DNA of 64,000 nt from IMG/VR virus record IMGVR_UViG_3300032287_002972, positions 62,001 to 126,000 of that record; one strand, written 5' to 3'. The position numbers and the translations under genes were made by a program. The notes under the pieces are model-generated. The model saw only the letters and a program-made list of their open reading frames with translations, was not told the origin of the DNA and did not search any database. This stretch comes from a virus. Shown here in pieces: positions 2,295 through 28,946 of the stretch (within the stretch, counting starts at the first letter, position 1; each line of letters begins with the position of its first letter).

Positions 2295-2525
2295 TTATTT
2301 TAATTTATTTGCTTTATCCCTTTTTAATAATGAACCAACAATGTCTGACCATTTTGTTAACCCAATTTGATTTCCGGGTCCTCTAGTCACACCTGATTCC
2401 CATTTACCTACTTCTGGGTATCCTTGCCCACCTGAAGTAGGTGTGGTAGTACCAGCAGTAGCATCTTGTTCATCTATGTTTTTTATTAATCGTTTATATT
2501 GTTTTTCTGAGATTATTATTTTCAT
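2295..2525 (-). CDS. Small protein with ITESQ-type N-terminal peptide
   Basis: 76 residues: the shared terminal peptide (MKIIISEKQYKRLIKNIDEQ), a Thr/Gly/Ser linker, and a short C-terminal body (GYPEVGKWESGVTRGPGNQ). The terminal peptide ends in DEQ, a plausible T4-type prohead protease site. A TATTTATAA-like box lies just upstream. It starts 5 bases from the end of the next gene. Function unknown; a small packaged head protein is possible. Confidence 0.7.
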   Translation of the reverse strand: MKIIISEKQYKRLIKNIDEQDATAGTTTPTSGGQGYPEVGKWESGVTRGPGNQIGLTKWSDIVGSLLKRDKANKLK

Positions 2526-2572
2526 GTTTTTATAAATATTTTGAATTTATTAAATGTTTGTTTTATAAATAT

Positions 2573-2941
2573 TTACTCATCATAAATAGTATCATCTATC
2601 TTTGAAAACATTTTAATGTATTGTCCCGATTTGGCGTTTGCCTCATCTTCAATTTCACCACCGATATCTGGTGGTTTAACTTTTAATCTTCCATCTTCAT
2701 ATTGTTTATGGTGAACCATTTCATGTGCAATACTTCTCATGACATCAACCAAGAATCTATTTTTGATATTAATCCTAATTACTTTATTCTTTTTAGAATA
2801 ATCATAATTAGCGGTAGTTTTTAACTCACCTCTACCATTTTGTAAAACAATGGTTGGACATTTTTCCAATCCAAGTTCTTTTTTTACGAATTTTACAAAT
2901 TCGATAATTTTTTCCTTTTTTTTATCTTCCAAGAATTCCAT
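2573..2941 (-). CDS. SprT-like or similar HExxH zinc metallopeptidase domain protein
   Basis: 122 residues. HEMVH at residues 73-77 supplies the two zinc His ligands and catalytic Glu of an HExxH metallopeptidase. The downstream acidic segment (GGEIEDEANAKSGQYIK) could give the third ligand. The protein is little more than a minimal metallopeptidase fold. It lacks the shared ITESQ peptide, so it may act in the infected cell instead of being packaged. A TATTTATA-like box lies just upstream of the ATG. Confidence 0.7.
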   Translation of the reverse strand: MEFLEDKKKEKIIEFVKFVKKELGLEKCPTIVLQNGRGELKTTANYDYSKKNKVIRINIKNRFLVDVMRSIAHEMVHHKQYEDGRLKVKPPDIGGEIEDEANAKSGQYIKMFSKIDDTIYDE

Positions 2942-3002
2942 ATTATATAAATATATCCATTTAATATATACAACTTAATAACTTTTAATTATAATTATTT
3001 AT

Positions 3003-3329
3003 ATGATGAATTGGTACGATATTCAATATCTTTATTCTAATGCAATGGAATTATTTTCTTCAACAATGTTTCCCAACGTTGGTGTTCCATCTATTTCTGT
3101 GCTTGAATTTTATGATATAAAAAAACTATATAGTTTTTTTGATAAACAAGGAATATATCTCACTATTGAAATGTACACAAAAAATAATTGGAGTTATACT
3201 ATTTCATTAGAAAATGAAAAAATAATAATAACTTCCAAAGAATCTAAAAACGAAAGAGAAGAGATTGAATATGACGGGTTTGAAGAATGTTTTAAATTAT
3301 TAAATAAAAAATTAATAGAAAAAAAATGA
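3003..3329 (+). CDS. Hypothetical protein
   Basis: 108 residues, not recognised. It is mixed alpha/beta with a charged C terminus and no signal or membrane segment. Its stop overlaps the start of a 40-residue gene by ATGA, so the two are probably co-translated. It sits alone on the plus strand between minus-strand genes. The start could be either of two adjacent ATG codons. Confidence 0.6.
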   Translation: MMNWYDIQYLYSNAMELFSSTMFPNVGVPSISVLEFYDIKKLYSFFDKQGIYLTIEMYTKNNWSYTISLENEKIIITSKESKNEREEIEYDGFEECFKLLNKKLIEKK

Positions 3330-3448
3330 ATACACTAGAAATGTCTGAAGAAGAAAAAAATAGAATTCTTCAAAAACACAAAAACGCAATTAAAAAAGAA
3401 AATGTAAAAAAAGAAACATTAAATAAAGGTTTACAAAAACCTAAGTAA
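3326..3448 (+). CDS. 40-residue protein resembling the ESEK terminal peptide
   Basis: Short ORF coupled by ATGA to the preceding gene. The product begins MNTLEMSEEEKNRILQKHKN, matching the N-terminal peptides at 1055-2290 (SESEKNRILGLYG) and 27595-28083 (TESEKREILELHKKHG). It is almost nothing but that peptide plus a Lys-rich tail. It may be a stand-alone docking peptide or a remnant of a larger protein. Confidence 0.5.
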   Translation: MNTLEMSEEEKNRILQKHKNAIKKENVKKETLNKGLQKPK

Positions 3449-3462
3449 TGTATTATTTTTTA

Positions 3463-5852: not shown

Positions 5853-5856
5853 AATC

Positions 5857-7167: not shown

Positions 7168-7512
7168 ATGAATAAAAATTACCAACCAATTGTTGTAGAT
7201 AATGCAACTAAAATGTTTAAAGTTTTAGAAGAAGAAAACTTTTTTTCTGAATTCCAAATTGAAAATAGAGAATTTGTTTTCGAATATTTTTGTGATTTTT
7301 TCACCGAAAAATTCATTAATGGTGAATATGATAATACTAACATAGACATTTCAAATGATGAAATGGAAAGATGTTTATTAGATATCACAATAAAAGATAC
7401 GTTACATACATTAACCAAAGAAGGTATTGTAGATATGATTGAAGACGAAAATAATGACGAACAATTTTTTTTAACTGATTTAGGAAAAAATATAGTTAAA
7501 AAAATAAATTAA
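7168..7512 (+). CDS. Hypothetical winged-helix-like protein
   Basis: 114 residues, helical, with a C-terminal part (TIKDTLHTLTKEGIVDMIED...FFLTDLGKNIVKK) that reads like a winged-helix recognition helix and wing, as in small regulators. There is no firm family match. It lies alone on the plus strand and its 3' end overlaps the 3' end of the flavodoxin-like gene by four bases. It could be a transcriptional regulator. Confidence 0.55.
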   Translation: MNKNYQPIVVDNATKMFKVLEEENFFSEFQIENREFVFEYFCDFFTEKFINGEYDNTNIDISNDEMERCLLDITIKDTLHTLTKEGIVDMIEDENNDEQFFLTDLGKNIVKKIN

Positions 7513-8264
7513 AGTTCAAAAGTTTTATTAAAATCATTTCCTGATTTTTTGTAACTTTCTTTTGATTCATCATTAGAATTTTCAGTGTATTGCCAATTCC
7601 ATGAAAGTTCTTCCTTTAAATCAAACCCAAAAAAAGTTAACACATTTTTTTGAATATCTATAACATTTTTACCATTCCAATTTTGACCTATAGCAATAAT
7701 TCCACATGAAATGTCTTTTAAAAGATTTGACTCGTTTAATGTTGAGTGTCTGTTCTCCAACCATGTTAATCTTTCAATAAGATTTTGATAAATAGCGTTC
7801 ATTTGACCCCATCTTATAGAACCAAAAAATAAAACAGTGTCACTTTCAAATAACACTTTTGTTACTTTCCATAATTCATCATCAGGATTATTGATGTTTC
7901 TCCAACATCTATGATGTCCTGTTGGATTTTTATCTTTATCATCTAATGATGCTTTTTTAAGTCCACATTCATTTCCTTTCATATGTGATACATTAGCCTC
8001 ACAAGTATAGATTTTTAATTCAGGTATTTCTATTAAAGTAACTTTATTTTTACCTAAATATGATTGGATGGCTTTAGCTAATCTTGTCGACTTAGGTTCT
8101 TCTTTTAATTCTTTAGACGCCCAACCACCTCTATTTGAGGTTGTTAAAAATAAAATCTTTTCTTTTTTTTCTAAAAATTTTATTGTTTCAATTAATTTTT
8201 TATAATGAGGGTCATTTTTTTTTAATGTTGGATCAATCTCTTCAAATAAATGTGAAAGTTTCAT
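7509..8264 (-). CDS. Flavodoxin-fold NAD(P)H-dependent FMN reductase-like protein
   Basis: 251 residues. After a T4-type N-terminal peptide (MKLSHLFEEIDP) comes ILFLTTSNRGGWASKELKEEPKS (flavin phosphate loop), a Cys-containing middle region (YTCEAN, NECG) and VLFFGSIRWGQMNAIYQNLIERL, the pattern of NADPH-dependent FMN reductases and multimeric flavodoxins. The C terminus is charged. The peptide suggests packaging or virion association; a redox role after injection would be unusual and is only a hypothesis. It overlaps the coiled-coil gene by one base. Confidence 0.7.
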   Translation of the reverse strand: MKLSHLFEEIDPTLKKNDPHYKKLIETIKFLEKKEKILFLTTSNRGGWASKELKEEPKSTRLAKAIQSYLGKNKVTLIEIPELKIYTCEANVSHMKGNECGLKKASLDDKDKNPTGHHRCWRNINNPDDELWKVTKVLFESDTVLFFGSIRWGQMNAIYQNLIERLTWLENRHSTLNESNLLKDISCGIIAIGQNWNGKNVIDIQKNVLTFFGFDLKEELSWNWQYTENSNDESKESYKKSGNDFNKTFEL

Positions 8265-8593
8265 TATTTTTTATTTTTTTCGTCAATTTGACTTGAACTA
8301 TGTGACATTTTTTTATGTTCTCTAATTTTATTCTTTAATTGTTTAATTAAATTGTGAGTTTTAATTAAATTTTCTGAGATATTTTTAACCCTACCAACAG
8401 ATAAAGTTTTTAACCCTTCGGGCATCGCATCGTCAACTTTCCTAAGTTCTTTTATTGTTTCAACAAGTTGATTTTCGAATTCTTCTATTTTAAACTGTAT
8501 TTTATTATACTCTTCTCTACGAATTTTTTTAGTTTCTTCAAAAAGTATTTCTTTAATTTTATTTCTTACTAATGATTCATCAATATTTTGCAT
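8264..8593 (-). CDS. Coiled-coil protein with amphipathic N terminus
   Basis: 109 residues, almost entirely helical and highly charged, with heptad-like stretches (FKIEEFENQLVETIKELRKV and ISENLIKTHNLIKQLKNKIR). The N terminus (MQNIDESLVRNKIKEILFEE) resembles the terminal peptides nearby. It is coupled by overlap to the flavodoxin-like gene. Family not recognised; a structural or scaffolding role is possible. Confidence 0.65.
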   Translation of the reverse strand: MQNIDESLVRNKIKEILFEETKKIRREEYNKIQFKIEEFENQLVETIKELRKVDDAMPEGLKTLSVGRVKNISENLIKTHNLIKQLKNKIREHKKMSHSSSQIDEKNKK

Positions 8594-12901: not shown

Positions 12902-12927
12902 AAAGGAGGTTAATACCTCCTTTTAAA
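12902..12927. terminator. Bidirectional terminator
   Basis: Symmetrical AAAAGGAGG...CCTCCTTTT hairpin between the convergent endolysin and the 545-residue gene; A-run on one side and T-run on the other serve both strands. It overlaps the last codons of the minus-strand gene. Confidence 0.75.
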
Positions 12928-14547
12928 TTCATTAATATCTGTTTCTGGTTTATTTTTAAGTGTTTTTACATCTGGTTTTGGTTCGTTTCCGTCTTCATAC
13001 ATATTTGGATTATCAGATAATAACTTTAAAAAACCATTTCTTGACATAAAATATGTTTTTTTTGGGTTTCTTTCGATTGCATCATATATTCCATAAAATG
13101 TCCCTTCGTTAATAATTTTATTTATAGTATACTCTTCAACAATATACGTTTTTTTAACATCATTTTCGGTATGGAAATATCTTCTAATTTCTCTACTATT
13201 ATAGATAGGTTCATAAACTATATTATCTTTTTCTAAAAATTCACCTTTTTGATAATCAAAAATCCCATATAGGTCTCTTGATCTACTTTTTATTATTTTT
13301 ATTAATGGATTTTTTATACTTAGTTTACTTACTTCGTATTTTTCCCCTAATAACCTATTCATAATTGCTGTGACACCTTCATTAAAACCTAATTGTGTTA
13401 ATTTAGTATCTAAAAGTTTAAATTGAGGTTTATCCTTACGTATTTCTGATAAAAAATCGAAATTACTAAATTTATCATATACATTATCTCTTGTTGTGAC
13501 ATTAATGTACGCATTTTTTAGTGTAGTATCTAATGATAACCAAGATTCTGGTTTAGTAAGAACATTTCCAAGGTCAATATATGATTTTTTATGTTTTCTT
13601 GACTGTCTTTTAAAATCAAAACGACTTGAACTATTTTCCACCATTTGACCTACTATAGTTTTTACTTCAACTTCCTCTTCTGAGTACTCTCTTTGAACAA
13701 TTAAATCTTTATGTTCAGTTAATTTTGGATAAATTTTACTGATTTCTTCCCACGTAAATGGTGTGTCATTATCATTTTTAACAGATGTTAAACGATAATT
13801 TTTATCAGTATCTTTAGCACTTTGTAATGCACCTAAATAATATTTATTTTTTTCTGGATCTTTTTCTATTTCCGGATTTTTTGATTCATCAATAACGAAA
13901 TAAAAAGTACGATCAGGTCTATATCGTCCCCACATATTGGTTCTATCTCCAGTCCATGTAACACACCATGAATGAGACCCACCTAAATCTTTACCTACTT
14001 TATGAGAATAATAACCAAATCTAATTGAAGTTGCCTGATTAGGTATATCGTAAACTCTAAAATCTCCATCATCAATTATTAAATATTTTTCACCAAACCA
14101 TAATTTTTTTGATGCGTTAACTATCTCATCATTTAGTGTATTTTTTTTTGTTGATATATTATCTTCATCTGGAACATCTAAATCAACATCAGAATATTGT
14201 TCAAGTAAAAAAGTTATTTGATCGTAATCATACTTTTTAATGTCTTTTAAATCATTTTGGTTAAATAATTTATGCCCATGATTACCGTCATATCTATTTA
14301 AAAAAGAAAATACTTGAGGTTGGTTAGCAGCTAAATTACCTTTTACATTATTAAAATCGGTAATGATTTTATCGATGACATTATTTCTTTCTTCGTCAGT
14401 TAAATTAAGAGTTTCATTTTTCCATTTTTCAGATAAAGTTTTAACTAATGCTTTATTTTTTATCTCTTCGGATAATAGATTTCTGATATTAATTTTTTTA
14501 ATCAATTCTTTTAATTGACTTTCATTAATTACAATTTTATTACTCAC
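12910..14547 (-). CDS. Large protein with ITESQ-type N-terminal peptide and SWC motif
   Basis: 545 residues. The start (MSNKIVINESQLKELIKKIN) belongs to the shared terminal-peptide group. The middle includes YLIIDDGDFRVYDIPN, GGSHSWCVTWTGDRTNMW and RTFYFVIDES, an order similar to the TWSSC...GTIICYLTKV region of the 510-residue protein at 22408-23940. The C-terminal half is helical and repeat-like. I do not recognise the domain; the conserved Trp-Cys after a Gly-rich stretch may be functional. A TATTTATAA box lies just upstream. The peptide makes a packaged protein plausible. Confidence 0.65.
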   Translation of the reverse strand: MSNKIVINESQLKELIKKINIRNLLSEEIKNKALVKTLSEKWKNETLNLTDEERNNVIDKIITDFNNVKGNLAANQPQVFSFLNRYDGNHGHKLFNQNDLKDIKKYDYDQITFLLEQYSDVDLDVPDEDNISTKKNTLNDEIVNASKKLWFGEKYLIIDDGDFRVYDIPNQATSIRFGYYSHKVGKDLGGSHSWCVTWTGDRTNMWGRYRPDRTFYFVIDESKNPEIEKDPEKNKYYLGALQSAKDTDKNYRLTSVKNDNDTPFTWEEISKIYPKLTEHKDLIVQREYSEEEVEVKTIVGQMVENSSSRFDFKRQSRKHKKSYIDLGNVLTKPESWLSLDTTLKNAYINVTTRDNVYDKFSNFDFLSEIRKDKPQFKLLDTKLTQLGFNEGVTAIMNRLLGEKYEVSKLSIKNPLIKIIKSRSRDLYGIFDYQKGEFLEKDNIVYEPIYNSREIRRYFHTENDVKKTYIVEEYTINKIINEGTFYGIYDAIERNPKKTYFMSRNGFLKLLSDNPNMYEDGNEPKPDVKTLKNKPETDINEFKRRY

Positions 14548-15967: not shown

Positions 15968-16902
15968 TTTATTATTTGTTTTATTCTATTTATTTCATTT
16001 AACGTTTTTTGGTAGTTGTCTGGTATTTTTTTTACACCGAAATCATTAAATATTATTACTCTATTTATTAATTCATAATCAATACCCTGTTGTAATAATG
16101 TTTTCTTTAATGATTCTCTATTCTGTGAAAATTTAAATAGAAATACAATATCTTGATATTCTAATTTTTCACCTTTTGATTTAATAATTTTTATTGCTAT
16201 ATTATTTGTTTCTTTTGAAGAAGCGAGTAATAGATATATACCCCAATTATTTAATTCAATACCTTGTGTTTCAATAATTTTTGTTGCAATTTCATCTTTA
16301 ATATAATCATCTTGTGAAATATTAAGTAAATTTTTAATATCCTCAGTATCTAATTTTTTACCTTTTACTTCGATAATTTTTTTTGCAATGTTATACTTAG
16401 TTTTTGTAGAATTAAGTATTATTTCTATGTCATATTTATCTAATTCTTCACGTTTTTTTTCTATATATTTTATTGTAATTTCATCTGAATAAGGAATTAA
16501 TTTATATGTATCATAATCAGTTAATCCATCACCTTTTGCGTTAATAATTTTAGATACAATATCATCTTTATTATCTGAATATTCAAGTAAAAACTCTATA
16601 TCATATTCACCCAATTCTTCATCTATTATATATATGACTTTTGATATATAATAATCTTTATTTTTTGAAAATTGGTACAGATATTCTAAATCATCACTAA
16701 GTAAACCTTCAGTACCATTTGTTTCTATAAATTTTATTTTTTCATCGTCACTTAACATTTTAAATTCCCATCTTTCATATCCTGCAACACCTCTCATTCT
16801 TTTATAAGATTTCTTTAATGATGGAGATAAACGATCATATTGTTTTTCCGGTATTCGTGATCCTGTATTTACATATCTATTTAATACTTCAGAATGTTTC
16901 AT
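15964..16902 (-). CDS. Helical-repeat protein, KHSEVL family member 1
   Basis: 312 residues. Architecture shared by five consecutive genes: N-terminal MKHSEVLNRYVNTG module ending in a conserved Trp-Glu region, then units of about 33-38 residues of the form DIxxLLxxSxNKxxIAxKIIExKGEKL, then a C-terminal helix (YQKTLNEINRIKQIIK). The repeats are predicted helical hairpins forming a solenoid. The C-terminal helix resembles the N-terminal peptide of the ART-like proteins. It is joined to its neighbours by ATGA overlaps. Confidence 0.75.
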   Translation of the reverse strand: MKHSEVLNRYVNTGSRIPEKQYDRLSPSLKKSYKRMRGVAGYERWEFKMLSDDEKIKFIETNGTEGLLSDDLEYLYQFSKNKDYYISKVIYIIDEELGEYDIEFLLEYSDNKDDIVSKIINAKGDGLTDYDTYKLIPYSDEITIKYIEKKREELDKYDIEIILNSTKTKYNIAKKIIEVKGKKLDTEDIKNLLNISQDDYIKDEIATKIIETQGIELNNWGIYLLLASSKETNNIAIKIIKSKGEKLEYQDIVFLFKFSQNRESLKKTLLQQGIDYELINRVIIFNDFGVKKIPDNYQKTLNEINRIKQIIK

Positions 16903-17786
16903 CTCATTATTTCTTTTATTCTCCTTATTTCATTTAACATTTCTTGATAATTATCTGGTATTAATGGTGTAAATTGGGTATTTATTTCATTTGAAATATC
17001 AGATATTACTTTATTTATTAATTTATAATCAACACCATTTTGTAATAATAATTTTTTTATTAATTCTTTTTTTTCTGGGTAAAAAGTAAACTGCATAGAA
17101 TTAAATAATGCAAATATATCATCACCATTTAATTCTTTACCTTTTGTATAAATAATTTTTTCGGACATTTCATAACGTTCATTAGATGATAAATATATAA
17201 TTAAATTTTCGATATCTAGACTATTTAATTGTATACCTTTTGTCTCAATAATTTTTCTTGCAATATCAGCTTTATTAACTGAAAACAACATCATAAGTTT
17301 TAATTTTTCACTATCTAATTTTTCACCAAATGTTTCAATAATTTTTATCGCAATATTATCTATATTAAAATATTTTTTAGTCATTAAACTTCTTACCTCA
17401 GAATCATCTAATTTTTCACCTTTTACTTCAATAATTTTTGTTGCGATATCATCTTTATTCTCTGAATAACCAAGTAAATTATATATGTTACCAAATACTA
17501 ATTTTTCACCAAATGTTTCAATAATTTTTGTTGCAATAAGATCTATATCATTTGAATATTTAAATAAATCTTGAATATCGTAATGACTTAATTTTACGCC
17601 TTTTATTTCAATATAGTTAATTCTTTGATTATCACTTATAAATTCATATTCCCAATCTTTAAAACCAGCAACACTTCTTATTCTAATATAAGACTTTTTT
17701 AATACTGGTGTTAAACGATCATATTGTTCTTTTGATAGGTGTTTTCCATTATTTACATACCTACTTAATACTTCTGAATGTTTCAT
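16899..17786 (-). CDS. Helical-repeat protein, KHSEVL family member 2
   Basis: 295 residues. N-terminal module MKHSEVLSRYVNNGKHL...QYDRLTPVLKKSY, about six solenoid units, one with an inserted or altered linker (LMTKKYFNIDNIAIK), then LLLQNGVDYKLINKVI and the C-terminal helix NEIRRIKEIMR. Several units repeat KIIETFGEKL almost exactly, indicating recent unit duplication or gene conversion. It overlaps both flanking paralogues by four bases. Confidence 0.75.
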   Translation of the reverse strand: MKHSEVLSRYVNNGKHLSKEQYDRLTPVLKKSYIRIRSVAGFKDWEYEFISDNQRINYIEIKGVKLSHYDIQDLFKYSNDIDLIATKIIETFGEKLVFGNIYNLLGYSENKDDIATKIIEVKGEKLDDSEVRSLMTKKYFNIDNIAIKIIETFGEKLDSEKLKLMMLFSVNKADIARKIIETKGIQLNSLDIENLIIYLSSNERYEMSEKIIYTKGKELNGDDIFALFNSMQFTFYPEKKELIKKLLLQNGVDYKLINKVISDISNEINTQFTPLIPDNYQEMLNEIRRIKEIMR

Positions 17787-18739
17787 ATCATTATTTCTTT
17801 AATCCTTCTTATCTCATTTAACATTGATTGGTAATCATCTGGTATTAATGGAATATTTAAATGAAAATTTTTGTTATACCCATTTATAACATCATTTATT
17901 AATATATAATCAACATTATTTTGTAATAATGTTTTCTTTATTAATTCTTTATTTTCTGAACGTTTAAGTAAAATAAAGATTTCCTTTACATCTAATTTTT
18001 GACCTTTTGTTTCTATAATTTTTATTGCAATCTTATCTTTATCCTTTGATTCATTAATTAGGGTTCTTACATCCCTTATATCTAATTTATCACCTTTTGT
18101 TTCAATAATTTTTATTGTAATGTTATCATTTACGTTATCTGAAAAATTAAGTAAACTTTCTATGTCACTAGAGATTAATTTTTCACCTTTTGTTTCAATA
18201 ATTTTTATTGAAATATGGTCATTTACGTTTTCAAAATCTTTTAATATGTATTCTATACTAATGTAATCTAATTTATCACCTTTTGTTTCAATAATTTTTG
18301 TTGCAATATCATCTTTATTAACTGAATATTTTAATAGTAATACTATAATGTAATTATTTAAAGAATCACTTTTTGTTTGAATAATTTTTGTTATAATACC
18401 ATCTTTATTCGTTGAATGATTAATTAAACTATTAATAATTAAATTATTTAAATTATCACCCATCCCGTCAATAATTCTCATTATAATATTATTTTTATTA
18501 TCTGAATATTTAATTAAATTATCAATAAAATAACTGTTTAAATAGATACCTTCTCTCTCAATATAATTAATTCTTTGATTATCATTTATATATTTTAATT
18601 CCCAATGAGAATAATCACCCACAACAGATCTGATTCTAATATAAGATTTCTTTAATGATGGAGATAAACTATCATATTGTTTTTCTGTTATTTCTACGCC
18701 AGTATTTACATATCTACTTAATACTTCTGAATGTTTCAT
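17783..18739 (-). CDS. Helical-repeat protein, KHSEVL family member 3
   Basis: 318 residues, the longest of the five paralogues. It has the same N module (with GDYSHWELKYI in place of GYxxWEF) and the most regular repeat run: IATKIIETKGDKLDYISIEY, ISIKIIETKGEKLISSDI, ITIKIIETKGDKLDIRDV, IAIKIIETKGQKLDVKEI. It ends NEIRRIKEIMI. Variation is concentrated in the DIxxLL half of each unit, as expected of a binding surface on a solenoid. Confidence 0.75.
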   Translation of the reverse strand: MKHSEVLSRYVNTGVEITEKQYDSLSPSLKKSYIRIRSVVGDYSHWELKYINDNQRINYIEREGIYLNSYFIDNLIKYSDNKNNIIMRIIDGMGDNLNNLIINSLINHSTNKDGIITKIIQTKSDSLNNYIIVLLLKYSVNKDDIATKIIETKGDKLDYISIEYILKDFENVNDHISIKIIETKGEKLISSDIESLLNFSDNVNDNITIKIIETKGDKLDIRDVRTLINESKDKDKIAIKIIETKGQKLDVKEIFILLKRSENKELIKKTLLQNNVDYILINDVINGYNKNFHLNIPLIPDDYQSMLNEIRRIKEIMI

Positions 18740-19590
18740 ATCATTATTTGTTTTATTCTCCTTATTTCGTTTAACATTGATTGGTAATTATCTGGTATTA
18801 ATGAGATATCTAAATTATTACGTGTTATAACTTTGTTTATTAACATATAATCAACACCATTTTGTAATAATGTTTTCTTTATTAATTCTTTATCTTTTGA
18901 ATATAAAAGTAAATAATATATGTCATCACTATCCAAATTTTCACCTACTTTTTGAATAATTTTTACGGCGTCATTATCTTTATTTTTTGAATTTAAAAGT
19001 AAAATAGATATCATATCATAGTTTAATTTTATACCTTCTGTTTCAATAATTTTTGTTGATATGTCTTTATTATCTGAAAATTCAAATATTGTATTTATGT
19101 TACTTATTTCCAAGTATTTACCTTTTGCATGAATAATTTTTATTGCTATCTCATCTTTATTATCTGAATTTTTAAGTAGATATTTTATTTCACTATTTCT
19201 TAAATTTTCACCTAATGTTTCGATAATTTTTATTATAACATTATCTTTATTTTTTGAATCTTTAAATTGTGGTAATATTATTTCAAGTATGATATAATCA
19301 TCCAAATTTATACCGAATGTTTCAATAATTTTTGTTGCAATAATAACTTTATTTGGTGAATAGTCAAATATATCTATTATTTGATTATTTGTTAATTCCC
19401 AATTTTTTATTTCAATAAATTTAAGTTTTTCATCTTCACTTAACAGTTTAAATTCCCATTTTTTGTAACCTGAAATACCTCTCATTCTCATATAAGATTT
19501 TTTCAATGATGGTGATAAACGGTCATATTGGTTTTCTGGGATTAGTGAACCTGTATTTACATATCTATTTAATACTTCTGAATGTTTCAT
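18736..19590 (-). CDS. Helical-repeat protein, KHSEVL family member 4
   Basis: 284 residues. N module MKHSEVLNRYVNTGSLIPENQYDRLS is nearly identical to member 1, suggesting exchange between copies, followed by about six units and LLLQNGVDYMLINKVI before the terminal helix NEIRRIKQIMI. No catalytic residues recur among paralogues, so a binding role is more likely than an enzymatic one. Confidence 0.75.
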   Translation of the reverse strand: MKHSEVLNRYVNTGSLIPENQYDRLSPSLKKSYMRMRGISGYKKWEFKLLSEDEKLKFIEIKNWELTNNQIIDIFDYSPNKVIIATKIIETFGINLDDYIILEIILPQFKDSKNKDNVIIKIIETLGENLRNSEIKYLLKNSDNKDEIAIKIIHAKGKYLEISNINTIFEFSDNKDISTKIIETEGIKLNYDMISILLLNSKNKDNDAVKIIQKVGENLDSDDIYYLLLYSKDKELIKKTLLQNGVDYMLINKVITRNNLDISLIPDNYQSMLNEIRRIKQIMI

Positions 19591-20375
19591 ATCATTATTT
19601 CTTTAATCCTTCTTATTTCTTGTAACATTGATTGGTAATTATCAGGTATTAATTCAATATGACTTACACCATCTTTTTCAAAATTATACTGGTTTATTAC
19701 TTTATTTATTAATTCATAATCAATACCTTTTTGTAATAATAATTTCTTTATTAATTCTTTATTTTCCGGATAAATAAATAAGTATTTTATGTTATGTTTA
19801 TTAAAATATTGTTTATCAATTAATTGAATAATTTTTATAGCCATATCATCTGCATTTTGTGAATGTCTAATAAAAAAAATTATTTTTTCTTCGTCCATAT
19901 CTACCATTTTTTTATTATTTTCAATAATTTTAGATATAAGATTTTCTTTATTAATTGAATTAGGAACATAATTAATTAGAGTACTAATCATATCATCATC
20001 TATCTCATCCAACGTTTCAATAATCCTTATTGAGATTTCATATTTATTATTTGAATTATTAAGTAATAAACTAGCTTCATTATAAGTTAAAGTCTTACCT
20101 TTTTTTTCAAATATTTTAGATATCATATCATCTTTATTATCTGAATATTGAAGTGTGTATTTTATTTCATAGAATTCTAAATCCTCACCTTTATTTTCGA
20201 TAAAATTAATTCTTTGATTATCATTTATTACTTGAAATTCCCAACTTTCATATCCTGCAACACCTCTCGTTCTAAGATAGGATTTTTTTAACACAGGTGT
20301 TAACCTGTCATATTGTTCTTTTGGTAATCGTTCTCCGGTATTTACATATCTACTTAATACTTCTGAATGTTTCAT
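19587..20375 (-). CDS. Helical-repeat protein, KHSEVL family member 5
   Basis: 262 residues, the first gene of the five-copy operon and the most divergent in its repeats (IFEKKGKTLTYNEASLLLNN, ISIRIIETLDEIDDDMISTL). The N module and the C-terminal LQEIRRIKEIMI helix are conserved. It begins after a short gap from a gene encoding a secreted protein. Divergence at the operon head with homogenised downstream copies fits stepwise tandem duplication. Confidence 0.75.
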   Translation of the reverse strand: MKHSEVLSRYVNTGERLPKEQYDRLTPVLKKSYLRTRGVAGYESWEFQVINDNQRINFIENKGEDLEFYEIKYTLQYSDNKDDMISKIFEKKGKTLTYNEASLLLNNSNNKYEISIRIIETLDEIDDDMISTLINYVPNSINKENLISKIIENNKKMVDMDEEKIIFFIRHSQNADDMAIKIIQLIDKQYFNKHNIKYLFIYPENKELIKKLLLQKGIDYELINKVINQYNFEKDGVSHIELIPDNYQSMLQEIRRIKEIMI

Positions 20376-20828: not shown

Positions 20829-21404
20829 ATGAAAAGAACGGTTATTATTAATGAACAACAATTTACAAAACTAATTAAAAAAATTTTAAACGAACAAAAT
20901 AATATGGATAATAACACATTTCCGAAAAATCACAAAGAATTGATTAACATGATGCCTGATTCATTAAAAATTCTTTTTTATACTCAATGGCAAGCAAAAC
21001 AAAACCCGAAGTGGCACATGGAAGGTAATACGTTAAAACATATTATTATTGTTTTAAAAAGAGCGTTTGAACGTTATCCAAACAATCCTGACATCATTCT
21101 TGCGGCGTTATTTCATGACTTGGGAAAGTTAGACACTTACGCAATAAATCCAAAAACAGGACAACCAACGGCATACGGTCACGAAGTTAAATCAGGTGAA
21201 TATTTGGAAAAATATAAAGATTGGGTTAATTCTTTTGATGGAGTAAATTTTGATAAAATCAAATATTTGGTATTAAACCATATGGTTATTAAACCATCAA
21301 CATGGGATAATATGAGGCAACAAAAAAAGGACCCTATTGAACAGAATCCTTCTTTTGAAGATTTAAAAAATTTTACCAACCATTTAGATGGTGGTGGTTA
21401 TTAA
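20829..21404 (+). CDS. HD-domain phosphohydrolase with terminal peptide
   Basis: 191 residues. The N terminus MKRTVIINEQQFTKLIKKIL followed by NEQ is the shared peptide on the plus strand. The body shows the HD metal ligands: His in NTLKHIIIV (71), HD in ALFHDLGKLDTY (96-97), and later His in YGHEVKSGEY and VLNHMVIK. HD enzymes hydrolyse phosphate esters such as nucleotides or cyclic dinucleotides. The substrate is not evident. If packaged, it could attack host nucleotide or signalling pools on entry. Confidence 0.78.
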   Translation: MKRTVIINEQQFTKLIKKILNEQNNMDNNTFPKNHKELINMMPDSLKILFYTQWQAKQNPKWHMEGNTLKHIIIVLKRAFERYPNNPDIILAALFHDLGKLDTYAINPKTGQPTAYGHEVKSGEYLEKYKDWVNSFDGVNFDKIKYLVLNHMVIKPSTWDNMRQQKKDPIEQNPSFEDLKNFTNHLDGGGY

Positions 21405-21408
21405 TATG

Positions 21409-21612
21409 TTATTTCATAACATTTAATTCGGTACCATGTTTTTTTATGATTGCGTCTCTCGCAATATCATACACAACATTTTTACCTCTTTGACTTGCTG
21501 GTAATTCAACCCATTCTGAACTTTCACGTTTTTTCGTGAAAATATTACCATTTTCATTGGCATACTCGAAAGATTCTTCTTTCGATTCATTTACTAATTC
21601 AAATAATTTCAT
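21409..21612 (-). CDS. Small protein with T4-type MKLFELVNE peptide
   Basis: 67 residues. The N terminus MKLFELVNESKEESFEYA closely resembles the capsid-targeting peptides of T4 internal proteins (short hydrophobic helix then xNE). The remainder (KKRESSEWVELPASQRGKNV) is basic and ends in a small helix. Possibly a small internal head protein. Family unknown. Confidence 0.6.
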   Translation of the reverse strand: MKLFELVNESKEESFEYANENGNIFTKKRESSEWVELPASQRGKNVVYDIARDAIIKKHGTELNVMK

Positions 21613-21964: not shown

Positions 21965-22411
21965 TTATGATATATTTTCAAAATATAGTGGTTTTCTTGA
22001 AACCACAATTGTTGCCCCTATTTCATTCACATCATCAAGTAGTATTTCACTACCATCACCATATACTTTATATAAATAATCACCATACTTATATTTTGAT
22101 GACTGAAAAGATGATGACATTAATGGTTCATCTGATACAAAGGTAAAACCGAATCCCTCACTCTCAAACACCTCGTTCATCCCATCAATGTTTTCATCTT
22201 CAAGATTCTCATCATAATCAGATATAATGTCCATATAGGCATTTCTAATAACATCAGAATAATCTGATGAATCTAAAATATCCCCTTTATAATAACCATT
22301 TGACATGTCATTCCTTGATGAGTGATAACCTAAAAAGTTTTTATTATCTACATTCTCAATTATAACACCCATTATTTGTTTAATTCTATTAATATTTTCT
22401 TGTAGTTTCAT
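21965..22411 (-). CDS. Possible ADP-ribosyltransferase-like protein with RIKQIM peptide
   Basis: 148 residues beginning MKLQENINRIKQIMGVIIEN, the same helix type as the two ART-like proteins at 25972 and 26826. The body has FLGYHSSRNDMSNGYYKGDI and a late strand EIGATIVVSRKPLYFENI. The YHSS start and Gly-Tyr-Tyr segment resemble the NAD-binding N-terminal half of ART folds, but the match is weaker than in its neighbours. Start overlaps the end of the 510-residue gene by four bases. Confidence 0.5.
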   Translation of the reverse strand: MKLQENINRIKQIMGVIIENVDNKNFLGYHSSRNDMSNGYYKGDILDSSDYSDVIRNAYMDIISDYDENLEDENIDGMNEVFESEGFGFTFVSDEPLMSSSFQSSKYKYGDYLYKVYGDGSEILLDDVNEIGATIVVSRKPLYFENIS

Positions 22412-23940
22412 ATTTTTTTATTTAAATTTACAAATAATTCAATGTATCTTTTTTTATGAACGGGACTTAAAAATTTAAATTCATATCCTTGAAGGTCATA
22501 TTTTTGTATTTGAGATTTTATTGAATCTTTTGGAAAATCATTCTTAACGAATTTTTCTAAAACAGATATTTTTCTTTCAAAATACGTTTCTTTTTGAGTA
22601 GATGAAGCGTGTTTAAGTTCTTCTTGGGTCATTGTGTGTTTATTTTTTATGAGTGTATCGATTGCAAATGTCTTTTGCTCGGGAGTTAACATTTCAAATT
22701 CCCAATCAAGTAAAGAATGTCCTTTATTTATTTTAATATTAAAATGTTCTTCTCTTTGTTCAGGAGTTGCCTCTTTTAGTTGGTCTGTCCATATTAATAT
22801 ACCATTTTTTATTTTATAATCAATTATTTCTTTTTTTACTTCTTTTGGTGAGTTATTAAATATGTATTCGTCTTCATACATATTATAGACAGTATACTTA
22901 TTATTTTTTATAAGTAATGAAATATATCTTTTCTTTTGACTTTGTGATGCTAATACATAATATAATAAATCCTGAAGAATATTTCCATTTATTAACATTT
23001 TTTCAATAAGTTGTCTTCTATCCATTATAGGAAGTGATATAAATTCTGGATTTGTTAGTTCTTCACCTTTTTCTATTTTTTTTAGTGCCCTGTTTCTAAT
23101 AGATTTTTTACCCTCAACCGTATCTCTATAACTATCATCATATAAACATCCTAACCTTCTATATGTTCCCGACAATTTTTGTGTTTTTTCCATGTAATCG
23201 TCTATAGTATCTGTAAATTTTTCAGAATCTGGTATATTGCCATATGTTTTTTGGTCTGGATATAAAATAACATCTTTTTCATTTTCTACATTTAGAAATG
23301 GTTTTATTAAAACTCTCCCTAATGGGTTTTCTATATTTGTATCATTTACTTTTGTTAAATAACATATTATAGTTCCCTCTTTCATGTCTCTTTCCACGTA
23401 ATGTTGGTTCCCCCCCATAATAAGGTTCATACAACTACTCCAAGTAGGTAATCTACCAGTCGACATTCCCGCAATATCGTACTTGGCACTGGAAAATATT
23501 ATAACTAAATCATCCTCTTTATCTATTATACCTCTACTCTTTATTGATGCATATCTATCTATTAATTCTTTTGCTTCAGGTTCTTTTTTTGACACAATAT
23601 TCAAGGCTCTATTTAACGCTATTTCCTTATTATTTTTCATATTTATCGCAAGATTATTTCGATAATCTTTTATGATGAATTGGTATGGTTCTAATATGTC
23701 TTTAATCTCATTTTCTGTAGAATCATTCGTATATGGAAACGATATTCTCCATCCTCGTTTATCTATTTGACGTGCGTTAGGTAATGATTTTAAATTCGTG
23801 AATACTTGTTTAATCCTTTCCTCAGCTTCTGGACTTCTTTCTATTTCAAGATATTTTTTTGCTACGGAGTATGCGACCGCTTCGTCAACAGTACTTTTAA
23901 TAATCTTTTTATATTGTGATTCTGTAATTATTATTTTCAT
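22408..23940 (-). CDS. Large two-part protein with ITESQ-type peptide, SSC motif and helical repeats
   Basis: 510 residues. Terminal peptide MKIIITESQYKKIIKSTVDE. Residues about 60-280 form a mixed domain with LVIIFSSAKYDIAGMSTGRL, TWSSCMNLIMGG and GTIICYLTKVND, comparable to the SWC region of the protein at 12910-14547. The C-terminal 200 residues are helical units containing LTPEQ or ATPEQREEHF and FxxxTLIKN-type motifs, similar in style to the KHSEVL repeats. It may be a toxin-like head with a solenoid tail. No known activity can be assigned. Confidence 0.65.
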   Translation of the reverse strand: MKIIITESQYKKIIKSTVDEAVAYSVAKKYLEIERSPEAEERIKQVFTNLKSLPNARQIDKRGWRISFPYTNDSTENEIKDILEPYQFIIKDYRNNLAINMKNNKEIALNRALNIVSKKEPEAKELIDRYASIKSRGIIDKEDDLVIIFSSAKYDIAGMSTGRLPTWSSCMNLIMGGNQHYVERDMKEGTIICYLTKVNDTNIENPLGRVLIKPFLNVENEKDVILYPDQKTYGNIPDSEKFTDTIDDYMEKTQKLSGTYRRLGCLYDDSYRDTVEGKKSIRNRALKKIEKGEELTNPEFISLPIMDRRQLIEKMLINGNILQDLLYYVLASQSQKKRYISLLIKNNKYTVYNMYEDEYIFNNSPKEVKKEIIDYKIKNGILIWTDQLKEATPEQREEHFNIKINKGHSLLDWEFEMLTPEQKTFAIDTLIKNKHTMTQEELKHASSTQKETYFERKISVLEKFVKNDFPKDSIKSQIQKYDLQGYEFKFLSPVHKKRYIELFVNLNKKI

Positions 23941-23950
23941 AATTTTTTAT

Positions 23951-24875: not shown

Positions 24876-25373
24876 TTAATTACGTTCTTTAAAATAGTTG
24901 TTTATTATGTGTCCGCCTTTAAAAAAATTGACCTTATCAAATGGTTTATCCCATTCGGTTTCATTGTCAATTAGTTGTTGTCTAATATCATAACCAATAA
25001 TACCCGCATAACATGAAATGTCGTCAATCTCTAGTGGAGTTACCTCAATTAAAGTGTTATTATCAGAGTCATACGCCCACCAATGTTCAATTGGGTAATA
25101 TGATTCAGTAAATGCATAACCACCCACAGGAAATATATTTTTACCTTCGTCTATTCCATCCATAACATAGTTAAACGAATTTCTTTCACACTTGTTTTTT
25201 TTACCGTATATATAATTTATACGTTTAACATCACCAACTAAAGAAAACACATAATTTGGGTTAGTCTCAGCAAACGTTAAAAAGTTTTCACCTAATCTAT
25301 CATTAATACCTTTTATATGGAATTTAATCAATTCGTCATTATTTATTTCATTTAAAATGGTAATTAATTTCAT
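24876..25373 (-). CDS. Possible Cys/His protease-like protein with MKLxxxLNE peptide
   Basis: 165 residues. The T4-type start MKLITILNEINNDELIKF is followed by KKNKCERNSFNYVMDG (Cys 62), PIEHWWAYD (His 97) and LIEVTPLE (Glu 110). The Cys, then HWW, then strand with Glu/Asp spacing resembles papain/transglutaminase-fold enzymes and related phage proteins with a CxxN...H pattern. The activity is unproven. It lies between two ART-like genes. Confidence 0.5.
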   Translation of the reverse strand: MKLITILNEINNDELIKFHIKGINDRLGENFLTFAETNPNYVFSLVGDVKRINYIYGKKNKCERNSFNYVMDGIDEGKNIFPVGGYAFTESYYPIEHWWAYDSDNNTLIEVTPLEIDDISCYAGIIGYDIRQQLIDNETEWDKPFDKVNFFKGGHIINNYFKERN

Positions 25374-25384
25374 TATAATATTTT

Positions 25385-25927
25385 TTAATTAAATTGTTCT
25401 AAATACTTAACGAGTCTTTCCCCATATAATATATCATATGGTTCTTGTTCTTCCAATGAAAAATAATCACCGTTTTCAATAAAATTAGGTAAAGATTGAA
25501 CATCTATATAATTTACTGTATTGACTTTTTTATTTTTCATATCATAAACATAACCATTAATTCTTCTAAAAATTGTTTCATTCTTTTTAATAATTACCAA
25601 TATTGCCTCATTAATGTTTGGTGTACCACCAAAATTAGAATAACTCCAAGTATCAGGGTTATCACTAAAAAATAAAACTCCTTCAACTCTATCTTCGTTT
25701 TGGTTATAATATTCATCATCCATATACATTTGGTAACTTTCAGTATTTTTAACGGTGTCACCAAAATCAGGTAATAAACCAAATCTTTTTATCGAATCCA
25801 AATTTTTAATATTTGAACCATGATATAAAAAAGATTTATTTGGTTTTGGTACTTTAACTATTTTTTCTTCATTTAAAATATTGTTAACAACCCTTTTAAA
25901 TTGTGATTCTGTGATTATTATTTTCAT
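25385..25927 (-). CDS. ADP-ribosyltransferase-like protein with ITESQ-type peptide
   Basis: 180 residues. N-terminal MKIIITESQFKRVVNNILNE ends in an ideal LNE cleavage site. The body has SFLYHGSNIKNLDSIKRFGL, typical of the H-containing first strand and helix of HYE-class ART or KptA-like folds, then GVLFFSDNPDTWSYSNF (the Tyr strand) and EPYDILYGERLVKYL (late acidic strand). Short length suits a single catalytic domain. It shares its unusual GC-rich leader with the gene at 23951-24814. Confidence 0.68.
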   Translation of the reverse strand: MKIIITESQFKRVVNNILNEEKIVKVPKPNKSFLYHGSNIKNLDSIKRFGLLPDFGDTVKNTESYQMYMDDEYYNQNEDRVEGVLFFSDNPDTWSYSNFGGTPNINEAILVIIKKNETIFRRINGYVYDMKNKKVNTVNYIDVQSLPNFIENGDYFSLEEQEPYDILYGERLVKYLEQFN

Positions 25928-25971
25928 ATTTTTTTTATAAATTATAAATATCCCGGCACCCGAGAACCGTT

Positions 25972-26823
25972 TTAACTTAATAATTTCTCCACGGTGTTCA
26001 CCAATTCAGGATTACTTCCGTCTTGTTTTGCTTCATGATATTTTTGGGAAATGAATAGTTCAATATTTGGAACAAGAAGGTCATTAAGTTTTTCTTGTGG
26101 TATCAACATTATTTCTCTCCCATCATCAAAAATAACACCATCAAAACCTGAATGTAAAATTAGGTTATTAAAAGAATCCTCCAAACCAAAAACAGAGTTA
26201 AGTTTATTTAAGTTATTAGTTTCAATAACTCTTAATTCTAATTGTTCCATAAATCTATCAAATCCTAATTTAGGTTCTTCTTTTAATGATTTTTTTAATG
26301 TGTTAACAATATAATCGGTATTTTTATCAAAAACGGAATATCTTTCTTTTAGGTTATTTATTTCATTTGTAATTTCATCATATTCGTTATTGTTACGTAC
26401 ATTAATCAACAAATCCTCTAGTTTATGGATTCTTGAACTTATTTCAGATGGTAATTCTAACATGTAAATTACTTGATTAATGCTCATATTTCCATTTAAT
26501 AAGTCTAAAGAATTTGCGTTCAAATATGTTGACTTTTGTCCGTAATCATAATTTTTAAATGAACTACTAAAATAATATCCTTTACCATATCTTCCTCTCA
26601 TTGAACCTTTTATTTTAGATGAGTCAAAATTGGAAATGACTTGGTCTCCGTTATGTGCAATTAGATTAGTTAAATTTCTTAATGTTACCTCAGTTTGTAT
26701 ATCTTTTAATTTCGGTTTTAATGATTCAGATGTGGATTCTACTGATTCTAAAGATGGGTTAGTTGTTGATTCATTTAATCCCATTATATTTTTAATCCGT
26801 GATATTTGTTCGTTTAGTTCCAT
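25972..26823 (-). CDS. ADP-ribosyltransferase-like protein with RIKNIM peptide
   Basis: 283 residues from the ATG at 26821-26823, chosen so that MELNEQISRIKNIMGLNE is N-terminal as in the next gene. The body has NLIAHNGDQVISNFDSSKIK and GRYGKGYYFSSSFKNYDYG, then a helical insert, and finally GFDGVIFDDGREIMLIPQ. The late YDGVI..GxE strand carries the Glu expected of ARTs found in phage MuF-type and toxin proteins. Probable substrate: a host protein or RNA, unknown. An earlier in-frame ATG would overlap the upstream gene. Confidence 0.7.
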   Translation of the reverse strand: MELNEQISRIKNIMGLNESTTNPSLESVESTSESLKPKLKDIQTEVTLRNLTNLIAHNGDQVISNFDSSKIKGSMRGRYGKGYYFSSSFKNYDYGQKSTYLNANSLDLLNGNMSINQVIYMLELPSEISSRIHKLEDLLINVRNNNEYDEITNEINNLKERYSVFDKNTDYIVNTLKKSLKEEPKLGFDRFMEQLELRVIETNNLNKLNSVFGLEDSFNNLILHSGFDGVIFDDGREIMLIPQEKLNDLLVPNIELFISQKYHEAKQDGSNPELVNTVEKLLS

Positions 26824-26825
26824 GA

Positions 26826-27581
26826 TTAACAATTTATATTAATATCGAGATTATTTAATCTACTTATCATTTCGTTGGTTTTCTTTTCTGTATCTTTTGA
26901 TAATATACCACCAACTTTATTTGTAATAAAAACTTCCGAGATTTTAATTACGTTTTTTAATGGTATTGGTTCAAAAACTCTAATATACTCATCTTGTAAC
27001 ATATACAAATCCAAGTCTTTTGGTGATATTGCTAATATAACACCTTCACTACTGTTCGGAAGATAATTTCTTGCGGTACTTGGAGTTTGTCCCAAATTGA
27101 TACCTTCAGTTTCCAAGATAGCACCCCTCATATCGCTGTCTATAAAACCTTGTTTTTTTATTCTTTCCCAATCTTTTAACGAAACACCTCTAAATAATAT
27201 TTTATCACCAATTGCTCGATAAATTGGAATTTTACTATCTTTGTCCCATGATCCTGTTGTTGGCAATTCACCAACCTTTTCTCCCATTTTGTATGTGTAG
27301 GAATCACTATAATTTAAATCTTTTAAAAAAATGGTCATTTGGTTTTTGACATCATCCTTATCTGATAAAAAATAACCGTCCTCAAAATACCCACGAATTC
27401 TACGTTGTTCTTGTTTAAGTTCATACCATTTATCATCATAATTTTCATTATCATAATCACTAATCACCTTTTCCAATGTCTGTTGAATACATTTTAATTT
27501 ATTATCTATATTATTTGATGAGACTTGTTCATTTAACCCCATTATATTTTTAATCCGTGATATTTGTTCGTTTAGTTCCAT
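26826..27581 (-). CDS. ADP-ribosyltransferase-like protein with RIKNIM peptide, paralogous N terminus
   Basis: 251 residues from the ATG at 27579-27581; the longer frame upstream overlaps the transglutaminase-like gene and looks non-coding. The N terminus MELNEQISRIKNIMGLNEQ is almost identical, also in DNA, to the preceding ART-like gene, while the bodies differ. Motifs: DKILFRGVSLKDWERIKKQG, LGQTPSTARNYL, GVILAISPKDLDLY and IRVFEPIPLKNVIKI. The FRG...S/T...E order fits RSE-class ARTs. Confidence 0.65.
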   Translation of the reverse strand: MELNEQISRIKNIMGLNEQVSSNNIDNKLKCIQQTLEKVISDYDNENYDDKWYELKQEQRRIRGYFEDGYFLSDKDDVKNQMTIFLKDLNYSDSYTYKMGEKVGELPTTGSWDKDSKIPIYRAIGDKILFRGVSLKDWERIKKQGFIDSDMRGAILETEGINLGQTPSTARNYLPNSSEGVILAISPKDLDLYMLQDEYIRVFEPIPLKNVIKISEVFITNKVGGILSKDTEKKTNEMISRLNNLDININC

Positions 27582-27594
27582 AATTAATATATTT

Positions 27595-28083
27595 TTAAAA
27601 ATCCCCAATATAGTCGTAATATTCATTAGGGTCTGATGATAACTTATTAATAACAACATATCTTTCATCAAATTCAACATCAGGTATTTTTTTCCAACAA
27701 TATCCACCTCCTGTTTCATAAAGATAAGGTGGTATATCAACATTATATACACCATCTTCTGTTCTTGCCACGACATATACATGTTGTTCTCCAGATACTT
27801 GAGATACTGTTGAACATTCTATTCCATTATTTGATAAGACATCAGCCATTGCATCTGCAATGTCTTGACAAATACCACCTTCACCTAACATATCACAATA
27901 ACCATTTTCGTCTTGTTCCCAATCATCATAAACTTTTTGTGAGGAAAGGGCAAGTTTTGATTTTAAACTAAACAAAATATCTGTGTCTGTTTGTTCATTT
28001 AATGATTTTTTATAACCATGTTTTTTGTGTAATTCGAGAATTTCTCTCTTTTCAGATTCTGTTAAGACAAAGTTCTTATACAT
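27595..28083 (-). CDS. Transglutaminase-like cysteine protease/transferase with ESEK peptide
   Basis: 162 residues. N-terminal peptide MYKNFVLTESEKREILELHK, then a SLNEQ site near residue 30 that could be a prohead-protease cleavage point. The catalytic triad order of the transglutaminase-like superfamily is visible: Cys 72 in GGICQDIADAMADVL, His 101 in GEQHVYVVA, Asp 116 in VYNVDIPP. The fold includes proteases, amidases and crosslinking enzymes. It neighbours two ART-like genes on one strand, supporting a shared effector role. Confidence 0.75.
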   Translation of the reverse strand: MYKNFVLTESEKREILELHKKHGYKKSLNEQTDTDILFSLKSKLALSSQKVYDDWEQDENGYCDMLGEGGICQDIADAMADVLSNNGIECSTVSQVSGEQHVYVVARTEDGVYNVDIPPYLYETGGGYCWKKIPDVEFDERYVVINKLSSDPNEYYDYIGDF

Positions 28084-28127
28084 GTATTTTTTTTTTTAAT
28101 ATTTATAATAAAAAAACTGGAAAATTT

Positions 28128-28946
28128 TTATTTATTAAGTCCTTTTGTATTAATATTTATATTTGCAATTTTTGAAATATCTAAATAAACTTTATTATCT
28201 TTAAGAATTGAAAATGTGGCGAATAATGCGGGTATGTCTGAAAATTTTACATTATTTATTCTTAAGACAGAATAAAATGACCATAAATCTGATAGTACAC
28301 CTTTTTCTCCTTCCGGTTTTTGAAAAACCAAAAAATTATTTACTTTTCCTATTCTATAATCACCAAATGTCATTTTTTTTGTCTTTATTGCGTTAATAAA
28401 TTTACTCATAACCATTTGAGGATTATCCACAGGACCAATACCTAAAGTACTTCTTAAATTTTGAATTCTTGCTAACGTTTCTCGTTCGTTAGCGACATAC
28501 GAATCTTGTCCATTTTGAGGTGATGTAAGTGGTGTTGTATTTGTTGTTATTGAATCTTCACCAAGTTTAGTCATTATATTATCTATTAAGTGACCCATTT
28601 CATGTAGAATAGTGTTATACGCCTTAACATTTCCTGTAAATTTCCATGAATTTAAATTTATTAAAAATGGTGAATTAAAATTTACCCAACCATTACTATT
28701 CTGATTAGGACTATCATTTTTATTCCATAATTTAAGTTTAAATCTGGGTATTAAACTTAAAATCTTTTTTATATTATCTTTATTTTTAAATTTCATTATA
28801 GTATCTCTATTACTGTAATGTTTGATGAAATGATTTTTAACGTTTTGTAAATCACCATCATAATTCGTATTATTATTCTGTTCATTAATAATACGACTGA
28901 TTATTTTTTTTAATTGTGATTCGGTTATTTCTATAATCTTACTCAT
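28128..28946 (-). CDS. HExxH metallopeptidase-like protein with ITESQ peptide
   Basis: 272 residues. The N terminus SKIIEITESQLKKIISRIINEQ is a full copy of the shared peptide ending in INEQ. HEMGH at residues 115-119 (YNTILHEMGHLIDNIM) is a zinc metallopeptidase motif, with Glu/Arg-rich helix NERETLARIQNLR downstream as a possible third-ligand region. The C terminus is beta/alpha mixed. As the first gene of the minus-strand block it starts next to the G-rich junction. Likely a packaged protease. Confidence 0.7.
   Translation of the reverse strand: MSKIIEITESQLKKIISRIINEQNNNTNYDGDLQNVKNHFIKHYSNRDTIMKFKNKDNIKKILSLIPRFKLKLWNKNDSPNQNSNGWVNFNSPFLINLNSWKFTGNVKAYNTILHEMGHLIDNIMTKLGEDSITTNTTPLTSPQNGQDSYVANERETLARIQNLRSTLGIGPVDNPQMVMSKFINAIKTKKMTFGDYRIGKVNNFLVFQKPEGEKGVLSDLWSFYSVLRINNVKFSDIPALFATFSILKDNKVYLDISKIANININTKGLNK

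What the first reader, a model, noticed from the sequence alone, without database searches (positions are those of the whole stretch)
2295..28946. Shared terminal peptides suggest a packaged, injected protein arsenal
Seen: at least 15 otherwise unrelated proteins begin with one of a few short amphipathic peptides: KIIITESQLKKLI (15967, 23940, 24814, 25927, 28946, 2525, 14547, 21404 plus-strand gene), SESEKNRIL (2290, 28083), LNEQISRIKNIM (26823, 27581, 22411), MKLxxLxNE (8264, 21612, 25373). Many end in NEQ, NEE or NES. Known: T4 internal head proteins (IPI-III, Alt) carry an N-terminal capsid-targeting sequence cut after xxE by the gp21 protease. Inference: these are capsid-targeting peptides of several subtypes and the cargo is delivered with the DNA.
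Basis: partly seen in the sequence, partly recalled or inferred. Interest (0 to 1): 0.88.

Follow-up and report, generated by a model that had tools for sequence, protein, structure and literature searches.

The report
Phage address tags for capsid cargo
A virus of Bacteroidota bacteria carries at least twenty proteins that share short end-tags which, by their sequence, look like removable address labels for loading proteins into the virus head, so the virus probably ships a set of enzymes with its DNA; one kind of label looks copied from the head's own scaffold protein.

Summary
In detail: all 16 listed N-termini are present, and sharing of N-terminal peptides far exceeds chance (70 high-scoring pairs against 9, 9 and 13 in control blocks). 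A profile of the main tag trained only on other phages recovers 10 window-genome proteins, all N-terminal, with a clear score gap. The record encodes a gp21 (S77) prohead protease. Its major capsid protein has a gp21-type site, YLINE|AA, invariant in relatives; the tags end in the same kind of site ([LIVFM]xE after the core in 47/48 and 18/18, against 40% background). The same enzyme carries different tags, or none, in different phages, with homology starting just after the predicted cut. Tagged genes largely lack the Bacteroidota-type early promoter. New here: the LNEQISRIKNIM tag, also at C-termini of seven paralogues, resembles the C-termini of scaffold gp22 and protease gp21, and a distant Flavobacterium phage's tag resembles its own gp22 C-terminus. 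Best reading: capsid-targeting sequences working like T4's, expanded into a modular arsenal. Packaging, cleavage and injection are inferred; no virion proteomics exists here. New variant of a known kind.

The parts
1055..2290 (-). tagged cargo, 411 aa; MYNKFLISESEKNRILGLYG (T2)
   Evidence: homologue in G005 keeps IITESEKRRIL
2295..2525 (-). tagged 76-aa protein; MKIIISEKQYKRLIKNIDE|Q (T1)
7509..8264 (-). 251-aa protein, flavodoxin-like by eye; MKLSHLFEE|I; nine homologues, most with MNLEENIQRIKQMMISE|E-type tags instead
8264..8593 (-). 109-aa protein; MQNIDESLVRNKIKEILFE|E; junction conserved in five relatives
12910..14547 (-). 545-aa cargo; MSNKIVINESQLKELIKKINIRNLLSE|E (T1); relatives carry other tags up to the same junction
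15422..15967 (-). 181-aa cargo; MKIIITESQLKKLIKNNLKE|S (T1)
15964..20375 (-). five MKHSEV paralogues (15964-16902, 16899-17786, 17783-18739, 18736-19590, 19587-20375) with C-terminal L(N/Q)EIxRIKxI(M/I) peptide (T3-C)
20829..21404 (+). HD-domain cargo; MKRTVIINEQQFTKLIKKILNE|Q (T1); homologues with another tag or none
   Evidence: (Pfam HD 3.1e-05)
21409..21612 (-). 67-aa protein; MKLFELVNE|S
21965..22411 (-). 148-aa cargo; MKLQENINRIKQIMGVIIE|N (T3)
22408..23940 (-). 510-aa cargo; MKIIITESQYKKIIKSTVDE|A (T1); a homologue is fused to the next gene's homologue in L189
23951..24814 (-). 287-aa cargo, ADP-ribosyltransferase-like by eye only; MKVIITESQLKRLLE|T (T1); relatives L189 and L190 have other tags
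24876..25373 (-). 165-aa cargo; MKLITILNE|I
25385..25927 (-). 180-aa cargo; MKIIITESQFKRVVNNILNE|E (T1); weak PARP and Tpt1 matches on the same stretch
25972..26823 (-). cargo; MELNEQISRIKNIMGLNE|S (T3)
26826..27581 (-). cargo; MELNEQISRIKNIMGLNE|Q (T3)
27595..28083 (-). cargo, transglutaminase-like (weak); MYKNFVLTESEKREILELHKKHGYKKSLNE|Q (T2)
28128..28946 (-). cargo with HExxH (LHEMGH), metalloprotease-like; MSKIIEITESQLKKIISRIINE|Q (T1); one homologue carries a T3 tag

Best explanation
The shared end-peptides are capsid-targeting sequences that work like those of T4 internal proteins. A short amphipathic helix docks a late-made cargo protein into the assembling prohead core. The prohead protease gp21 then cuts after a (L/I/V)-x-E site at the end of the tag, leaving mature cargo loose in the head to be ejected with the DNA. 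Several interchangeable tag types exist. The T3 type (xRIKxIM, at the N- or C-terminus) appears to imitate the C-terminal helix of scaffold gp22, which protease gp21 also carries, so scaffold, protease and cargo may use the same docking contact. Shown: tags, cut-site pattern, protease gene, modular swapping, motif sharing, lack of early promoters. Inferred: docking, cleavage, presence in the virion, injection, action on the host.
For: gp21 S77 family at record 42578-43048, E=8.1e-23. gp23 site LINE|A invariant in the relatives with a readable gp23, of the same form as T4's FLTE|A and FIAE|A. [LIVFM]xE within 12 aa of the tag core in 47/48 (T1) and 18/18 (T3), against 40% of untagged proteins at that position and 12-28% further down the tagged ones. 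Tag swaps with homology starting at the predicted cut, e.g. NLLSE|EIKNKAL / TLLE|EVKNKAL / DLLLE|EVKNKKL; the HD enzyme with a T1 tag, an immuto-type tag, or bare. Held-out T1 profile. Motif [RK][MI][KR]x[LIM]M is found almost only at the gp22 and gp21 C-termini and cargo termini: 10 of 12 sites in the window record, or 11 counting one whose ORF start is over-extended, p=5.7e-06; 8 of 8 in G002. In immuto a gp22-C-terminus profile from the window's lineage ranks two N-terminal tags first, and they match immuto's own gp22 end SEQVSRWQKLAGIIK. Early-promoter sites at 2/33 tagged against 23/55 untagged early genes. T4 precedent, including C-terminal processing of Alt and gp21 (PMC9026906).
Against: No proteomics, so packaging and cleavage are unproven. 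T1 and T3 do not match T4's MKTYQEFIAE in sequence. T4, Syn9, RM378 and Mel-JY01 have gp21 but no such expansion. One contig with a possibly tagged cargo homologue (L189, 199 kb) shows no gp21 match, though it may be a fragment. An untagged HD homologue lies in a gp21-bearing contig. The late motif TATAAATA lies directly upstream of only 4/33 tagged genes. One doubtfully tagged gene (record 113119) has an early promoter. In one search the individual T3 scores are near the best of column-shuffled profiles; the strength is in their position. Several relatives are orthologous, so the 47/48 and 18/18 are not independent counts; the motif was chosen after seeing the tags, and its window count includes six paralogues.
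Confidence: 0.83

Rival explanations
1. The tags direct proteins to the tail or baseplate, or hold minor structural proteins together, and the tagged proteins are virion structure rather than injected cargo.
For: Some tag-like N-termini belong to conserved genes beside head genes (record 33411, 48234, 49536), and one tagged family in L201/L204 lies beside large probably structural genes. A peptidoglycan-hydrolase-like protein is among the tag-like ones.
Against: The tags end in the gp21-type site of gp23, the T3 motif matches gp22 and gp21, not tail proteins, and several bodies look like enzymes.
Confidence: 0.08
2. The peptides are a shared intracellular sorting, membrane-binding or stability signal unrelated to packaging; the [LI]xE ends are chance features of E-rich amphipathic helices.
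For: The tags are amphipathic helices (mean moment 0.54 against 0.28), and E is common in these proteins.
Against: Site frequency 47/48 and 18/18 against 40% background, swap junctions at the site, and motif sharing with scaffold and protease.
Confidence: 0.05
3. The shared N-termini are relics of recent duplication or recombination at a DNA cassette, without function in the protein.
For: Many tagged genes lie next to one another.
Against: Codons differ nearly as freely as codon usage predicts (224 identical against 205 expected); the peptide is kept across distant phages with different bodies.
Confidence: 0.03

Closest known systems
T4 internal proteins IPI-III and Alt with capsid targeting sequences (Mullaney and Black 1996; PMC9026906)
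   Same: Short N-terminal peptide ending in (L/I/F)xE, diverse bodies, gp21 protease, T4-type head genes; precedent for C-terminal processing (Alt, gp21)
   Different: Different tag sequences, several subtypes at once, about 20 or more proteins instead of four, some tags at the C-terminus, one subtype resembling the scaffold C-terminus
Phage P1 DarB N-terminal packaging signal (PMC9024508)
   Same: Short N-terminal signal sufficient to load a protein into the head
   Different: P1 is a temperate phage of another lineage; the signal was defined for one very large protein; its sequence was not compared here
Giant phage SPN3US and phiKZ ejection-protein propeptides (PMC5694885)
   Same: Prohead protease removes N-terminal propeptides of head and ejection proteins after E
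   Different: Propeptides mostly over 100 residues, no shared short tag reported, no confirmed gp22 counterpart
Flavobacterium phage vB_FspM_immuto (NC_055915)
   Same: Shares gp21 and gp23 ancestry and has its own multi-protein N-terminal tags
   Different: Tags are LSEQFxRMQxLAGIITE and NFDLKKFLVENKLT types; gp23 only 31% identical

Membership tests
T4-type capsid targeting sequence / internal protein | phage encodes a gp21 S77 prohead protease | tested here: met
   E=8.1e-23; relatives G001-G006 too
T4-type capsid targeting sequence / internal protein | short N-terminal peptide common to proteins with unrelated bodies | tested here: met
T4-type capsid targeting sequence / internal protein | peptide ends in a gp21 site like the one in the phage's own gp23 | tested here: met
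   (sequence level; cleavage not observed)
T4-type capsid targeting sequence / internal protein | sequence homology to T4 MKTYQEFIAE | tested here: not met
   T1-T3 do not match it by inspection, and a T1 profile gives no match to the T4 internal proteins; the MKLxxLxNE subtype has the same shape only. So: works like a CTS, not shown to be homologous
T4-type capsid targeting sequence / internal protein | late synthesis | tested here: inconclusive
   early promoters 2/33 tagged vs 23/55 untagged early genes; late motif directly upstream in only 4/33
T4-type capsid targeting sequence / internal protein | protein found processed inside virions | not testable with these tools
   needs proteomics
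T4-type capsid targeting sequence / internal protein | ejected into the host | not testable with these tools
   needs infection assay
Alt-like packaged ADP-ribosyltransferase | ADP-ribosyltransferase fold in cargo | tested here: inconclusive
   PARP E=0.019 and Tpt1 E=0.05 on one stretch of 25385-25927, both below curated cut-offs; AF2 of 23951-24814 poor, pLDDT 47

The most novel reading that the evidence does not exclude
One short docking motif, [RK][MI][KR]x[LI]M in this lineage and a lineage-matched variant in immuto, is used by scaffold gp22, protease gp21 and many cargo proteins at either end, so the head core works as an open loading dock whose code co-evolves with the scaffold and lets almost any enzyme be packaged by acquiring an end-tag.
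Probability: 0.5. Interest if true: 0.86.

Novelty: new variant of a known kind. Interest (0 to 1): 0.74.

Why it matters
How a T4-type head core recognises its internal proteins is, as far as the papers read here say, known only as an affinity for the core (PMC9026906). A natural set of interchangeable tags, one shared with scaffold and protease, would make that recognition directly testable. It would also give a sequence rule for finding packaged effectors in uncultured phages of Bacteroidota, whose cargo here is mostly of unknown function. None of six probe strings of such tags was found in the 5.39 million papers held, though subscription journals are largely missing.

Tried and rejected
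Short-peptide tblastn for T1 and T3 in GenBank phages found nothing; the immuto tag found only the immuto phages. Two cargo proteins have no relatives in GenBank phages; viral-contig scans found no relative for the 545-aa and the 180-aa cargo. AF2 of the putative ADP-ribosyltransferase was too poor to use, so no fold search was made; profile and sequence searches of PDB were chance level. Weak Pfam matches such as NMT_C, CdiA_C_tRNase, SET and ATLF are below cut-off and not accepted. I rejected record 113119 as a sure member (early promoter). Relatedness of T1 to any core protein: none convincing. A literature search found no immuto virion proteomics.

Full report
What was checked. The window is bases 62001-126000 of a 167,990-base virus record. 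Its ORFs were listed and read. The tags fall into T1 (KIIITESQLKKLI), T2 (SESEKxRIL, probably a form of T1), T3 (LNEQISRIKNIM) and a short MKLxxLxNE type. T3-like peptides also close seven MKHSEV paralogues, five of them in the window.

More than chance. In an unbiased comparison of 29-residue blocks between non-homologous proteins of the record, N-terminal blocks gave 70 pairs with score >=36 against 9, 9 and 13 in control blocks. The same excess appears in all six relatives read piecewise (G001-G006) and in Flavobacterium phage immuto, though in G004 one paralogous family dominates. It does not appear in T4, Syn9, RM378 or Mel-JY01 beyond paralogues and small counts. A T1 profile built only from other phages gives, in the window's record, 10 hits of 20 bits or more, all at protein N-termini, next non-tag 12.8. 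Exact ITESQ-core DNA is found six times in IMG/VR, always at an ORF start, and once, out of frame, in 84,980 cellular genomes.

Protease and cut site. The record has a gp21 S77 protease beside scaffold gp22 and major capsid protein gp23. In the relatives whose gp23 N-terminus could be read (from the 80 fetched), the gp23 propeptide ends in LINE|A. T4's known sites have the same form: IPII/IPIII FIAE|A, gp23 FLTE|A, gp24 LLRE|S (sequences; the cut positions are from my own knowledge of T4). In pooled tagged proteins of this lineage, [LIVFM]xE follows the tag core within 12 residues in 47/48 (T1) and 18/18 (T3), against 40% of untagged proteins at that place and 12% and 28% of tagged proteins further on. 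Several rows are orthologues, so this is strong but not a count of independent events.

Modularity. The 545-aa protein reads NLLSE|EIKNKAL here and TLLE|EVKNKAL or DLLLE|EVKNKKL in relatives whose tags are otherwise different. The HD-domain protein has a T1 tag here, an immuto-type tag in L193 and L198, and no tag in L199 and L200. The 251-aa protein at 7509-8264 has MKLSHLFEE here and MNLEENIQRIKQMMISE in most relatives. The metalloprotease-like protein has T1 here and T3 in G004. In L189 homologues of the window's adjacent genes 22408-23940 and 23951-24814 form one 749-aa reading frame with a single N-terminal peptide. Tags are conserved as protein rather than as a copied DNA cassette.

Timing. 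Genes at record 91-122 kb carry TTTG-N17-22-TAnnTTTG upstream, which I recognise (own knowledge) as the Bacteroidota promoter type; this and the kinship with immuto point to a Bacteroidota host. Such sites precede 23 of 55 untagged early genes but 2 of 33 tagged genes. The enzymes with clear assignments (thymidylate synthase, RNA ligase, helicase, DNA methyltransferases) carry no tag.

Scaffold mimicry. The gp22 C-terminus is nearly invariant in relatives (NPQFKRMKDLMSKIK) and the gp21 C-terminus reads like DRMKKLMGNLD. The motif [RK][MI][KR]x[LIM]M occurs 12 times in the window's record: gp22 end, gp21 end, six MKHSEV ends, two cargo N-termini, one further cargo whose true start lies just before it, and one internal site. 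In G002 all 8 sites are terminal; T4, Syn9, Mel-JY01 and RM378 have no terminal site. The motif was written down after the tags had been seen, and six of the window sites are paralogues, so the p-value there is a guide only. A profile of gp22 C-termini from the window's lineage, applied blind to immuto, ranks two N-terminal tags first, and these (LSEQF[KR]RMQ.LAGII) resemble immuto's own gp22 end (SEQVSRWQKLAGIIK). Individual scores are near those of column-shuffled profiles; the evidence is in where the hits fall. T1 has no such counterpart.

Cargo. Only the HD protein passes a Pfam cut-off. PARP and Tpt1 models touch the same stretch of 25385-25927 weakly. Transglutaminase-like and HExxH metalloprotease readings are weak or by eye. 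Six relatives encode small tagged proteins whose predicted mature part starts with a run of lysines. The structure prediction tried was unusable.

Verdict. Homology to the T4 CTS itself is not shown. Cleavage, packaging and injection remain to be tested.

Noticed in passing
window 60500-64000, continuing to record about 139000 (L006): About 70 or more tandem short ORFs (roughly 50-85 aa, minus strand) of one style, e.g. MKSVSNQVCKQINEKVH..., rich in QV/NQ/NEQV; function unknown.
   Followed up: no
window about 29000-60000, plus strand: Early region with a repeated Bacteroidota-type promoter TTTG-N17-22-TAnnTTTG before many small genes.
   Followed up: partly
L062, L064, L071, L076, L079, L083: Tagged small proteins whose predicted mature part begins with a lysine run (e.g. 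MIRLTEDQLVEMIQQIITE|KKKKKKKK), possibly DNA-binding internal proteins.
   Followed up: partly
G004 (200,775-base relative), several places: A different repeated N-terminus (EKEKLKRIFEFLEEKEGHNAPFxWKLINN) on many short proteins; probably a paralogous family, not examined.
   Followed up: no
window 56659-56736: ARAGORN reports one tRNA-like gene with a four-base anticodon call (agat).
   Followed up: no
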